From Aphrocallistes beatrix (lineage: Eukaryota > Porifera > Hexactinellida > Sceptrulophora > Aphrocallistidae), in contig OY725498.1 of the NCBI GenBank assembly GCA_963281255.1, positions 4,340,001-4,404,000 on the forward strand: a stretch of 64,000 nt of DNA, in the 5' to 3' direction. Positions 1 through 27,000 of the stretch are shown piece by piece (position 1 is the first letter of the stretch; each line of letters opens with the position of its first letter). The notes beneath the pieces are model-generated. The model saw nothing but the letters and a program-made list of their open reading frames with translations, searched no databases and had not been told where the DNA came from. A program made the translations under genes and the position numbers.

Positions 1-3000
1 CTGCTACTTATATCCGTGTGAGATGGTATCCTCCTCCTGCAATATATCAGAACGGTCCTATAACAATATATAATATCAGCTATACTGGACAACTATTCGA
101 TACCACAACACAATACGTTTATGTTAGTACACTGAATATCTATCCAGCAGTAGACCCTGTCTATTTCAACATAACAGGATTAGAAGAATACAACAATTAT
201 ACAATCAGTGTGAATGCTATCAACACAGTAGGAGCTAGTGACTTCACAGTTGGAGTAATACAGATAACAAATATTGCAGGTTTGTGGAGGAGTTTAAATT
301 GTCTCGAATATATGAATAAGTCATTTCACACTTCAATAAGAAGATTCGTATGATTACGAACGTATAAAATTGGGATTTAAATATATTCAGAACGGGAATA
401 TTACTTCCTATAATGTCACGTATATAGAAAATCCTATTGATTCTACTTCACAATTCGAGATAATGGTTACTTCATTAGAGAATACGCATCCAGCTACTTA
501 TTCCTCACTCAAAGATTTCATCCGAGTATAGAAGGATCATTTTTATATGATTAAAAAGCATCCAGTACCGTTAAATATAAGGTTGATATCATACAATAAT
601 AAACAAGTATTTCAAATACAGGTAACCATTCGCGGTTTTGACTATTGGGCGGAAAAAATTTTAGTCTTGTTTTGCTATTCGCGACTCGTTCCCTCGACTA
701 TTTGCGGTTTTCGTTGCTCTCTTCAGTAGTTTATGGGCTAGCAAGTCCATAACCTTATACGTATCTACAATTTAGGTTTAGTACTAAAGGCTAGACTTCA
801 CTATTTAGGTATGGTACTTAGGTTTGCTACTAGAGGAATATCTTCCATTTATCACTTCATTTATTACTACCATTTTACTTGTGCCAGTGTTTGTATGAGT
901 ATTACAGCTCAACTATAGAATCAATAACGTATTTAGCAAACTGTATCTAGCGTCGTTTTTATAATCTAGGAACGTAACCCCACCATTCTCATTGAACTAA
1001 CGTCTTGCCGTTCGCGATTTTGCCATTCGCGACAATTCTCAGGAACGTAACCCCTGCGAACGGCGAGGGATACCTGTATAATCAAAAATTTCATATAGCT
1101 CCAGCTGCAACTCCTCAAAATGTAACTACAGAAGCTCTCTCTGGTACTTCTATTCGTGTGAGATGGTATCCTCCTCCTGCGATAGATCAGAACGGTCCTA
1201 TAACAATGTACAATATCAGCTATACTGGACAACTATTCGATACCACAACACAATACGTTTATGTTAGTACACTGAATATCTATCCAGCAGTAGACCCTGT
1301 CTATTTCAACATAACAGGATTAGAAGAATACAACAATTATACAATCAGTGTGAATGCTATCAATACAGTAGGAGCTAGTGACTTCACAGCAGAGGTAATA
1401 CAGATAACGAATATTGCAGGTTTGTAAGGGATTTTAAATTGTTTCGAATATTAATAAATCATTTCATACTTCAGTCAGAAGATTCGGAAATAATTACTAG
1501 CGTACAAAAATTTAAATAGATTTATCAATCAATAGTATACACAAGTAAAAGTAACTTAATTCACACGAATTACAATGGAGACTCCGAATAACGGACACAT
1601 TGTGTTCATGGCTTTTGTTCGTTGTAGAGAGATGTTTGCTTCTCGGCGAGTACTTAACTACGTATTACTTAGTATGTACATATATGGTAAATTCATTCGG
1701 TTCCACGAGGTTTGTCCGTAGTAGAGGGGTTGTCCGCTTTTCGGGGTGTCTGTTTTGGGAGATTCCATTATATCATGTAACTAGACACTGTCGTTATTGT
1801 GCTTTTAATAAATTTGGATCATTTTTCAAAAAGTATCATTTGAAATAAATTTATTCCTCACTCAAAGATTTCTTCCGAATATAGAAAGATCATTTTTATA
1901 TTATTAAAAAGTTTCCATCACCGTTAAATATAAGGTTGATATCATAAAATAATAAACAAATATTTTAAATATGATCAAAAATTTCATATAGCTCCGGCAG
2001 CTACTCCTCAGAACGTAACTACAGAAGTTCTCTCTGCTACTTCTATCCGTGTCAGATGGTATCCTCCTCCTGGAATAGATCAGAACGGTCCTATAACAAC
2101 GTATAATATCAGCTATACTGGACAACTATTATGTGCCACAACAGAATACGCTTCTGTTAGTACACTGAATATCTATCCAGCAGTAGACCCTGTCTATTTC
2201 AACATAACAGGATTAGAAGAATACAACAATTATACAATCAGTGTGAATGCTATCAATACAGTAGGAGCTAGTGACTTCACAACTGGAGTAATACAGATAA
2301 CGAATATTGCAGGTTTGTGAAGGATTTTAAATTGTCTCAAATATATTAATAAATCATTTCACACTTCAGTAAGAAGATTCGTATAATTACGAACGTACAA
2401 AATTGGGATTTAAATAGATTTATAAATTAAAGTTGATTCTGGCATGTGGGAGTCTTTTGGCTATGGCTCAAGTTCTGAGCTCAGAGCGTATAATGTCGAC
2501 TTATCATAGAATTATGACATCATTGTCACGTTTTTAAAAGCTAAGCAATACAGTTATTCGAGCATAACTCAGTCATTTTAAGTGATAGAAGGCTGAAATT
2601 TTGATAGAATGTGTGTATTATTATTCCCATGTGATACAACTATCAGCAAAAAATGATGACTCATCATTTTGTTATGACGTCATATTACTCATCAAAATTT
2701 TAAAAATTGATCAATTTGGTGATTTTTTCGTGCGATATCGATTATAAGAAGAGTAGGACAGACGTATTTAGAGATGTTATTTCCCTTATAATTAATCAAT
2801 GGTGACCACAGGCGACCGAAGGGAGCCTCCGGTGGACACAAAGTGTCCGCCAGCCGCGCAGCGCATGCAAGCTAAGCGCGCTTGTAATCTTTACTATTAA
2901 AACTCGATTAATGTATATATATATCTGTAACGAATTGATTGAAGAAACTGCCGAGCACAGAAAGCTGATTTTTGGCATGTGGGGGTCTTTTGGCTATGGC

Positions 3001-24000: not shown

Positions 24001-27000
24001 TTATTCTTTGGACCATGGATAAGTGCTTGTAGTATTCCCATAGATTTTCATTTCATTGGAAATATCTCGCTTCATATGCAAGATAGGCCAATAAAATATA
24101 CTATCACCACCATATATAACCATATATCAAAGCACTAGAATCCGTTGTCAGAATATGTTTTGTCATCATCATATCGGCTGTTTTATTTCCACAATCGGCT
24201 ATTTTTAGAGCAAAATCAGGTGACTTTTTAACCTTTTGGTTTTACAGTTATTGAGGAATTTTACTAAAATTATAATTTCCTCTGTAACCAATCATTATGT
24301 TTAAAAGCAAATAAAGTGTATTAATTGATGAGTAGAACAAAACAAGTTAGAAGATCGCCTGATTTTGCTCTAAATATAGCCGATTGTGTAAATAAATAGC
24401 CAATATGATGATGACAAGCAAATTCTGACAACGGATTCGAGCACTTTGATATCTTTCTATAATATGACGCTGATAGTATATTTTCTTGGCATATCTTGCA
24501 TAAGAAACGAGATCTTTTTAAAGATATGAAGATGCCTGGGGATACTACTCTATCCATTGTCCAAAGAATAAAGCCACTGCCATTGCCACTGCTTTAGTGT
24601 ATATAGAATGCTATGAATTACACGTGCATTAGCCTGATGTTATGAGATATCTTATAATACAAATATTGTAGTTAAATCTGACAAATGAGTTCAATGACAC
24701 TTTTTAAAAAGATTTGAAATATTTAAATGATGAATTAGAGTATAACCTATTTGTATCTTGTCTAGGTCCTTCTGGTCCACCAATCAGCATAGCTTTGACA
24801 GTTCTATCTCCAACTATGATCCGAGTTAACTGGGCCAATGACTTTACAACACTAAATGGTCCTTTAGTACGATTCAACATATTTTACAGAATTCCTGATG
24901 AAACTACATCTACAATACAATTCATTCCTACCGATGTGGCAGGACCTTTCAATGAAACGATTTCAGAGCTGATGGCTAATCAAGAATACATAATTACCAT
25001 TAACGTAGAAAACAGTGTAGGCCAAAGTTCAAACTCGGCTGAACTTAGAGTCACAACGGATCCAAATCCAGGTCAGTGAATTTTATAACAAACAATTGAA
25101 ATAGATTCATTTCCTACTCCAGGAGGTTGGCAGAAAATAATTACTTTTTTCTTTAAAAATTTGTGACATAATATTTTAGTATATTTATTTCTTTAGATAC
25201 AGGGGGTTCTGTTGGTGCAATAGTTGGTGGATTGATTGTTGTAATAGTAATACTAGCAGTAGTGATCGTAGCACTTGTTGTATTGATGTTATTGTTTCTC
25301 CGATGGAGGTAAGATATAACGGAAAACCATCTACATATGTAAAGTATACTTATTAATCCCTTTTTAACAGAAAGCAAAAGGAAGAAGCCAAAGGAGTCAG
25401 TCACTCATCTGTTTTCAATGGAATTCCTGCTATAAAAGGTAAAAATAGACAAATATACATACAAACATGATGAGTTAGTTCCATTTAAAGTTAGATGCCT
25501 ACAAAGTTTAATGTTGATTAAATAAATTCATTTAGAAACAAGTGATCCAAACCAGAAAAAGGGAGAAAATCCAATCAGTCAATTGCCACCGCCAGTCGTA
25601 ATGAAGAGTACTGTGCCAGTGGAAAAGTTCGCTAAATACGTTGAAGAGATGAGTGCAAATGACAAACTTAAATTCCATGAAGAGTATATGGTAAATTTTA
25701 TAATACATACACAAGTATATGCTACAGTTAAAACGTCAAATCATTTATTACGTTAACACCTGAAAATTTCAGGCATTATGCTTAGTGACTGATGGAAAAT
25801 GCCTGTAATTTTCAGGTATTATACATAATAACTGATTTGACGTTTTCACTGTAACATGTATAAATGAGTTTACAAATAATATATTTACACAATTTAACCT
25901 AGGGCATTAAAGATCCACCACATACGAATGATATGTGTTCAATGTCAGCGAATGGACCTCGAAACAGATACAGAGATATCAGAACATGTAAGCCAATGGT
26001 TTTAAGCTAAATTGTATATTAATTTTATCCTACATTGTTCTTGTCTAGACGACCATTCTCGAGTAACTCTCACTCAACTAGATGGAGATGAATATTCCGA
26101 TTACATTAATGCGAATTTTATTCATGTAAGTAGTCATTAGAAAATACGTCCTGTAATTTTACTGTACTTAATCTCCACATATTTCTCTAGGGTTATTACA
26201 AAAAGAATGAATATATTGCAGCTCAGGGTAAAGATTTATATATATATATTATTTAAATAAAATGTTAAACTTGCATTACACGAATATTTTTGCAATAGGA
26301 CCACTTGATAACACGATCGCTGATTTCTGGAGAATGGCTTGGGACTGGAATGTCCCAACAATAGTTATGCTGACAAAATGCGTGGAAAGGGGCAGGGTAG
26401 GTTATAGATTATTTCACAGCATTTTACATGCTCACTTTTCACAAAACTATTCCTGTTCTATAGAGAAAATGCAGTCAGTATTGGCCAGATAACGGTACCA
26501 CTTGTTATTCATTCTACGATTCTGCTGGTGCATCCAATGAATTCGTACAAATCACAATTGATCGTGAGACCGTCTATGCTCACTACGTTATCCGTGAGCT
26601 CGTATTTTCGAGGGTAAGTCAGTTAAACTATGATCGATTTTTATTATTGAGTTAAGCTTTGAAATGCTCTTTGTTAGGTTGACATTCCCAACCAACAAAA
26701 ACGACTAACACAATGGCATTATACCAGCTGGCCTGATATGGGAGTGCCTGAGAATGGAACATCGTTGTTGAAGTTTGTGCAAAAGGTTCATCAATCATAT
26801 CCTAGAAATTCTGGACCAATGATCGTCCATTGCAGGTACATAATGATGTTAATGCTAACCTAGTGGATATCTACAATATTTTAGTGCAGCTAGGAATGGA
26901 CGGTATTAAGTGTGCATGTGTGTACACGCCTGCTGCGAAATCTAGCAGTCCGATTTCTTCAAAATTTCGCACTTAGGATCTCTTTATGATGTAGTAGTAG

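What the first reader, a model, noticed from the sequence alone, without database searches (positions are those of the whole stretch)
1..25071. RPTP with at least 35 FN3 repeats, one phase 1-1 exon each
Every FN3 domain in gene A is a single exon bounded by phase 1 introns, so any exon or block can be added or lost without changing frame. The visible ectodomain already exceeds the roughly 18 FN3 repeats of PTPRQ, and its 5' end is not reached. Very large FN3 arrays on a phosphatase are, as far as I know, unusual.
Basis: partly seen in the sequence, partly recalled or inferred. Interest (0 to 1): 0.72.

Follow-up and report, generated by a model that had tools for sequence, protein, structure and literature searches.

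The report
Sponge phosphatase receptor with 41 repeats
A glass-sponge genome appears to encode a cell-surface enzyme whose outer part is a chain of 41 similar modules, more than twice as many as in the longest human relative, built up by repeated in-frame duplication of exons.

Summary
Window 1-25071 carries 35 FN3 exons (one straddles base 1), all phase 1-1, plus one decayed fragment. With flanking sequence of the same contig the gene can be closed: a probable signal-peptide exon at -4747, a 37-nt exon, 41 FN3 exons (41 of 41 phase 1-1), a transmembrane exon and two tandem phosphatase domains ending at 29357; 61 exons, 5042 aa, no internal stop. FN3 no. 40 carries an RRRR furin-type site. D1 keeps WPD and [11 protein letters not shown]2 keeps the loop but not WPD. 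The array grew by duplication of exon blocks with their introns; copies differ and mostly show dN<dS. A neighbour gene (30633-39933, 6 FN3) has its own similar start. PTPRQ is an inapt comparison: it has one phosphatase domain, this has two, nearest PTPRS/LAR and PTPRA. By its mitochondrial code the host is a glass sponge. Phase 1-1 FN3 exons are ordinary in such receptors; the number is not. Best reading: a very long, probably glycosylated and furin-cleaved receptor phosphatase acting by its length (size exclusion) or long-range adhesion; this function is inferred. No transcript evidence was available.

The parts
1..279 (+). FN3 exon F7 (starts at -41, upstream of the window); F1-F6 and the two 5' exons lie at -4747..-414, outside the window
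388..499 (+). relic of an FN3 exon (resembles F2 and F27), truncated, not in the gene model
1099..1419 (+). FN3 exon F8, phase 1-1
1992..2312 (+). FN3 exon F9, phase 1-1
3495..3818 (+). FN3 exon F10, phase 1-1
3922..5844 (+). FN3 exons F11-F14 (3922-4221, 4315-4635, 5139-5426, 5521-5844), first A-F-G-E block
7262..7561 (+). FN3 exon F15
7655..7981 (+). FN3 exon F16
8505..8846 (+). FN3 exon F17
9302..11002 (+). FN3 exons F18-F21 (9302-9601, 9694-10014, 10298-10585, 10679-11002), second A-F-G-E block
11449..13625 (+). FN3 exons F22-F25 (11449-11748, 11834-12154, 12921-13208, 13302-13625), third A-F-G-E block
13760..14921 (+). FN3 exons F26-F28 (13760-14059, 14127-14453, 14601-14921)
15738..16832 (+). 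FN3 exons F29-F31 (15738-16058, 16122-16442, 16509-16832), first C-I-J block
18228..18975 (+). FN3 exons F32-F33 (18228-18527, 18658-18975)
19048..20143 (+). FN3 exons F34-F36 (19048-19368, 19434-19754, 19820-20143), second C-I-J block
20531..22035 (+). FN3 exons F37-F38 (20531-20854, 21712-22035), a duplicated pair
23159..23470 (+). FN3 exon F39
23582..23953 (+). FN3 exon F40 with an RRRR furin-type site in a segment of low model confidence
24766..25071 (+). FN3 exon F41, next to the membrane
25197..25308 (+). transmembrane exon
25371..25714 (+). two juxtamembrane cytoplasmic exons (25371-25438, 25536-25714)
25903..27546 (+). phosphatase domain D1, 8 exons; WPD and [10 protein letters not shown] present
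27659..29357 (+). phosphatase domain D2 and stop codon, 7 exons; [10 protein letters not shown] present, WHE in place of WPD; one GC-AG intron after 28587
30633..30980 (+). gene B: signal-peptide exon 30633-30665 and 37-nt exon 30944-30980, similar to the 5' exons of gene A
31500..39933 (+). gene B: 6 FN3 exons, transmembrane exon, D1 ([13 protein letters not shown]) and D2; 1354 aa in 26 exons with its 5' exons

Best explanation
Gene A is one complete receptor-type tyrosine phosphatase gene of a glass sponge: signal peptide, 41 FN3 domains, one membrane helix, a D1 with its catalytic motifs and a probably weak or non-catalytic D2 (read from the sequence or by homology). A polyarginine site in FN3 no. 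40 should let a furin-like protease cut it into a giant outer subunit and a membrane-phosphatase subunit that stay together, as in LAR (inferred). The array grew by unequal exchange of blocks of exons with their introns, which phase 1-1 borders make harmless to the frame (strongly indicated). The most likely use of the length is physical: a rod or string of roughly 125-165 nm (my estimate at a recalled 3-4 nm per FN3) that is pushed out of tight membrane contacts and so controls where the phosphatase acts, or that reaches far across the extracellular space to bind a partner (inferred, no direct evidence).
For: 61-exon model with start and stop, 5042 aa, one GC-AG intron, all others GT-AG; 41 of 41 FN3 exons phase 1-1; start exon and 37-nt exon resemble those of gene B (27 of 33 bases of the start exon identical), and the 71-bp block around the 37-nt exon matched only these 2 places in the genome; Pfam fn3 in 39 of 40 exons scanned; two Y_phosphatase stretches, E 2.2e-160; best PDB match PTPRS D1-D2, 522.7 bits; RRRR site; block duplications with intron identity 71-96 per cent over aligned columns in the 14 intron pairs compared; dN/dS by ratio of sums 0.44 over 64 within-type pairs, dN>dS in 3; 158 N-glycosylation sequons in the whole protein. 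Size exclusion is described for CD148 in PMC10815196 (passages); furin processing at a penta-arginine site for LAR in PMC8711739 (passages).
Against: No transcript supports the splicing of all 41 exons into one mRNA. The start exon rests on its likeness to gene B: its donor scores only 0.8 (gene B 1.9; 37-nt exons 1.7 and 3.6), it was missed by the first scans, 21 other candidate rows upstream passed the scan, and the raw BLAST match of the two start exons is weak (21 bases, E 0.07). Two exons of the cytoplasmic part (25371-25438, 26299-26396) have poor acceptor scores (-9.1, -6.5), and three borders there were set by hand. Function by length has no direct evidence; ligand and tissue are unknown.
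Confidence: 0.6

Rival explanations
1. The exon array is spliced selectively: different subsets of the 41 phase 1-1 exons are included, or different individuals carry different numbers, giving a repertoire of ectodomains, for instance for self/non-self recognition.
For: Every FN3 exon can be skipped or added in frame; recent block copies and a relic exon show turnover; 3 of 64 within-type pairs have dN>dS.
Against: No RNA or population data. 61 of 64 pairs do not have dN>dS. Phase 1-1 FN3 exons are common in receptor phosphatases (PMC5336234 passages), so the phase alone says little.
Confidence: 0.15
2. The FN3 exons belong to several genes, only the last of which has the phosphatase.
For: Some introns are long (up to 1417 bases) and no transcript is at hand. 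A start exon of another kind, or one too diverged to see, is not excluded: the scan asked for stronger donors and another phase than the real start exons have.
Against: No copy of either start exon or of the 37-nt exon in the array beyond chance-level matches; the 37-nt block has no third copy in the genome; no transmembrane-like exon among 13 candidate phase-1 frames in the 40 introns between FN3 exons, in a scan that does find the real ones in genes A and B; no phosphatase similarity listed before 25211; phase 1 throughout.
Confidence: 0.08
3. Assembly duplication or mis-join inflates the repeat number.
For: Tandem blocks are hard to assemble; reads were not available.
Against: No N in the 114 kb examined; copies of the A-F-G-E block differ by 1.3-10.6 per cent in exons and have introns of 503, 283 and 766 bases at the same place.
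Confidence: 0.05
4. The protein is mainly a long-range adhesion receptor or tether, to another cell surface, the matrix or the spicules, rather than a size-excluded phosphatase.
For: FN3 rods are adhesive in many proteins (recalled); many sequons; glass-sponge tissue is syncytial (section title in PMC10280926).
Against: No RGD motif; no binding domain other than FN3 in the model.
Confidence: 0.3

Closest known systems
R2A receptor phosphatases (LAR/PTPRF, PTPRS, PTPRD)
   Same: Tandem D1-D2 (PTPRS is the best PDB match), FN3 domains, a polyarginine furin site in the outer part (PMC8711739 passages).
   Different: LAR types have 3 Ig and 8 FN3 domains (same passages); gene A has no Ig and 41 FN3.
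R3 receptor phosphatases (PTPRQ 18 FN3, PTPRB 17 FN3, PTPRJ)
   Same: FN3-only ectodomain, mostly one exon per FN3 with phase 1 borders (PMC5336234 passages; PMC10815196 passages with Table 1).
   Different: R3 have one PTP domain, gene A two. In rows with one matched stretch D1 scores 192-224 bits with R3 domains, against 264.5 for PTPRA D1 and 260.4 for 2nv5 (that 2nv5 is a PTPRD domain is recalled).
Capsaspora FN3-only phosphatase with two PTP domains (mentioned in PMC5336234)
   Same: FN3-only ectodomain with two PTP domains.
   Different: Its repeat number and sequence were not compared here.
Gene B at 30633-39933 in this window
   Same: Similar 5' exons, related 3' FN3 exons, transmembrane exon and tandem PTP layout.
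   Different: 6 FN3; D1 has WTE and [10 protein letters not shown], so it may be impaired.

Membership tests
Receptor-type protein tyrosine phosphatase | Signal peptide, single membrane helix, cytoplasmic classical PTP domain | tested here: met
   (signal peptide and helix judged from hydrophobicity and likeness to gene B, no dedicated predictor)
Receptor-type protein tyrosine phosphatase | Catalytic WPD loop and HCX5R motif in D1 | tested here: met
   WPD and [10 protein letters not shown] in the model, aligned with PTPRS; activity itself not testable here
R3 subtype (PTPRQ, PTPRB, PTPRJ) | Ectodomain of FN3 only | tested here: met
   41 FN3 exons and no other exon between the 37-nt exon and the transmembrane exon in the model; 7 of the 40 introns between FN3 exons were scanned for other exons and gave only candidates with negative coding score
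R3 subtype (PTPRQ, PTPRB, PTPRJ) | Single PTP domain | tested here: not met
   two Y_phosphatase stretches
R2A subtype (LAR) | Tandem PTP domains | tested here: met
R2A subtype (LAR) | N-terminal Ig domains | tested here: not met
   first domain after the start is FN3; Pfam of residues 1-232 shows no Ig family
R2A subtype (LAR) | Furin cleavage into E and P subunits | tested here: inconclusive
   an RRRR site is present in FN3 no. 40; cleavage not testable

The most novel reading that the evidence does not exclude
The 41 interchangeable FN3 exons form a combinatorial or copy-number-variable ectodomain locus on a phosphatase, so that cells or individuals of a glass sponge display different receptor lengths and surfaces, a recognition system that signals by dephosphorylation.
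Probability: 0.1. Interest if true: 0.8.

Novelty: new variant of a known kind. Interest (0 to 1): 0.45.

Why it matters
It shows how far a receptor phosphatase ectodomain can be stretched by exon-block duplication, in an early-branching, syncytial animal. Gene A and its 6-FN3 neighbour have similar start exons and the same cytoplasmic layout but differ about sevenfold in repeat number, a natural pair for testing what ectodomain length does in size-exclusion models of phosphatase signalling.

Tried and rejected
A first scan for a signal-peptide exon with a phase-1 donor found nothing convincing. A second scan, with a phase-0 donor in front of the 37-nt exon, listed 21 candidate rows for gene A and none for gene B, and missed the start that I finally chose, whose donor is too weak for its threshold; that start was found through its likeness to gene B. 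A codon-score exon chain gave wrong partial models of the phosphatase part and was replaced by a chain through homologous cores. The idea that gene B has no start of its own and shares gene A's array was dropped when its own start exon was found. The first scans for internal start and transmembrane exons used thresholds that the real exons of genes A and B would not have passed; one search repeats them with looser thresholds and positive controls, with the same result. Paralogues of F41 on contigs C3 and C9 were checked with pieces of gene A's transmembrane and phosphatase part; no significant match (best i-E 0.02), and one C3 gene is instead an adhesion-type GPCR. I tried to see whether other phosphatase genes carry FN3 arrays, but read upstream DNA of only 3 such loci: one (C12:4477501-4487500) has three weak FN3 hits and Ig-like frames (the Ig reading is by eye), the other two no FN3 hit on the phosphatase's strand. 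So I cannot say that gene A is the only long FN3 phosphatase of this genome; genome-wide FN3 counts are lower bounds. Species identity was sought in papers without result (one paper, PMC11525543, opened by word search only).
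Full report
Observation. The window is C12:4340001-4404000 of a 100.5-Mb genome in 28 contigs. A profile started from 20 FN3 exons of this locus and rebuilt once from its hits found FN3 on the plus strand from -3949 to 25037, a second set from 31511 to 35898, and three weak hits further on. Splice sites show that each FN3 exon begins after AG in phase 1 and ends before GT in phase 1. In window 1-25071 there are 35 such exons, the first cut by the window edge, and one relic piece at about 388-499 that resembles F2 and F27 but is truncated.

Closing the gene. A 71-bp stretch at -4360..-4290 resembles 30912..30982 (84.5 per cent) and matched only these two places in the genome. 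Each copy holds an acceptor, a 37-nt open stretch and a donor. Upstream of each lies a short ATG exon: MKRLQILISIL at -4747 and [11 protein letters not shown] at 30633, ending at a GTGAGT and a GTAAGT donor; 27 of 33 bases agree. Joined, they give signal-peptide-like starts for two genes. This is the weakest part of the model: the donors score 0.8 and 1.9 on a scale where the FN3 exon donors used to build it score 4.3-14.4, and 21 other candidate rows passed the scan. The transmembrane and phosphatase exons were chained through homologous cores, with three borders or exons set by hand. The model of gene A has 61 exons, 5042 aa and no internal stop; all introns are GT-AG except one GC-AG. It has 41 FN3 exons, 41 of 41 phase 1-1, and spans 34,105 bases. 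Gene B has 26 exons, 1354 aa and 6 FN3.

One gene or several. Start-module sequences of A and B find nothing in the array beyond chance-level matches of 9-14 bases (E 1.1 or worse), while they find each other's 37-nt block (E 1e-10) and, weakly, start exon (E 0.07). No transmembrane-like exon appeared among 13 candidate phase-1 frames in the 40 introns between FN3 exons; the same scan finds the real ones at 25197 and 36058. Seven of the 40 introns were scanned for other exons and gave only four candidates, all with negative coding score. Phosphatase similarity, sought in frames of at least 40 aa over 114 kb, is first listed at 25211. This favours one gene, but splicing is not shown.

Domains. 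Of 40 FN3 exons scanned (F7 left out), 39 match Pfam fn3 at E<=0.001. The exception is F40; its AlphaFold model (mean pLDDT 72.1, pTM 0.63) has FN3 domains or FN3-based monobodies as best PDB matches. The RRRR stretch, residues 61-64 of that exon's product, lies in the low-confidence segment 55-66. The cytoplasmic part matches PTPRS over both domains with 522.7 bits. D1 alone, in rows with one matched stretch, scores 264.5 bits with PTPRA, 260.4 with 2nv5 (PTPRD by recall), and 192-224 with R3 domains (PTP10D, PTPRH, PTPRJ, PTPRQ, PTPRB, PTPRO). D1 has WPD and [11 protein letters not shown]2 has WHE and [10 protein letters not shown]; gene B D1 has WTE and [10 protein letters not shown].

Growth of the array. 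Naming each FN3 exon after the first earlier one with at least 70 per cent protein identity gives 16 types in the order ABCDCDCCCEAFGEAEEAFGEAFGEHBCCIJKLCIJMMNOP. A-F-G-E occurs three times in full, C-I-J twice, C-D twice near the start. In the pairs of block exons compared, DNA identity is 89-99 per cent, except F1-F26 (68) and F3-F28 (83); the introns between them are 71-96 per cent identical over aligned columns, often with large length differences. So the blocks were copied as genomic DNA. Of 64 within-type pairs, 3 have dN>dS; the ratio of summed dN to summed dS is 0.44; these pairs are not independent and gene conversion was not modelled. Genes A and B differ little in the six shared FN3 exons (dS 0.07-0.12; in one, F40, dN 0.141 exceeds dS 0.124) but much in the transmembrane and phosphatase part (dN 0.12, dS 0.53). 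The outer exons therefore seem to have been exchanged between the two genes after the catalytic parts split; this is an inference from one comparison.

Host. Contig C28 (17,996 bases) is mitochondrial. In its COX1, laid without gaps on pig, TGA stands at 11 tryptophans and 1 valine; none of 13 AGA codons faces arginine (5 S, 4 A, 3 G, 1 N); ATA faces 18 isoleucines and 2 methionines among 39; TGG does not occur in the aligned part. Reassignment of AGR to serine, preference for ATA-Ile and near absence of TGG are glass-sponge features in PMC2267718 (passages). I conclude Hexactinellida; the species is not identified.

Comparison with the literature. PTPRQ has 18 and PTPRB 17 FN3 (PMC10815196, Table 1 passage). 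PMC5336234 (passages, and one section) reports that the majority of FN3 domains of R3 receptors are single exons between phase 1 introns, that R3 types have one PTP domain, and mentions a Capsaspora phosphatase with FN3 only and two PTP domains. In four searches no title or abstract start shown names a receptor phosphatase with more FN3; one search showed 20 of 47 papers. Two glass-sponge genome papers, PMC10282587 and PMC10280926, searched by word only, do not contain fibronectin or phosphatase in the main text. The library is open-access only, so this is weak evidence of novelty.

Function. Read from sequence: gene structure, domain content, catalytic motifs in D1, mode of duplication. Inferred: cleavage at RRRR as in LAR (PMC8711739 passages), glycosylation at some of 158 sequons, length of about 125-165 nm, and a role of that length in keeping the phosphatase out of tight contacts or in long-range binding. 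The size-exclusion idea is borrowed from CD148 (PMC10815196 passages).

Noticed in passing
window 42232-49188 and 52845-63953: Two further receptor phosphatases whose ectodomain (Ig and FN3), membrane helix and most of both PTP domains lie in one giant exon (stop-to-stop frames of 2318 and 3702 aa), with a last part of D2 downstream (49633-49926; 64478-64777). The second ectodomain repeats a long unit several times (by eye).
   Followed up: partly
G000 contigs C15:65915-276551 and C2:51758-86825: Dense clusters of phosphatase matches, many with two PTP domains in one open frame of roughly 580-1020 aa (list truncated): it looks like an expansion of single-exon receptor phosphatases.
   Followed up: no
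G000 contigs C1:577973-805979, C4:4945800-5886398, C6:761382-1469279: Many FN3 matches in frames of about 110-180 aa, apparently large FN3 exon arrays elsewhere in the genome; no phosphatase match was listed in these stretches (list truncated).
   Followed up: no
L018:7226-9283 (minus) and FN3 at C3:2354477-2354776 (minus): An FN3 exon 59 per cent identical to the membrane-next FN3 of gene A lies about 700 bases upstream of a frame with GPS and 7tm_2, which suggests exon shuffling between a phosphatase and an adhesion GPCR.
   Followed up: partly
window 31500-35932 v 18658-25071: Genes A and B have nearly the same six FN3 exons (dS 0.07-0.12) but diverged catalytic parts (dS 0.53), as if outer exons were exchanged later.
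   Followed up: partly
window 2429-3341, 6247-6768, 34074-34802 and -10248..-9745: A dispersed repeat in several introns and upstream, in both orientations, which accounts for part of some long introns.
   Followed up: no
upstream, about -38440 to -28590 (minus strand): Three similar frames of about 400 aa that look like coiled-coil plus NHL-repeat proteins, a tandem family near the locus (the family name is by eye).
   Followed up: no
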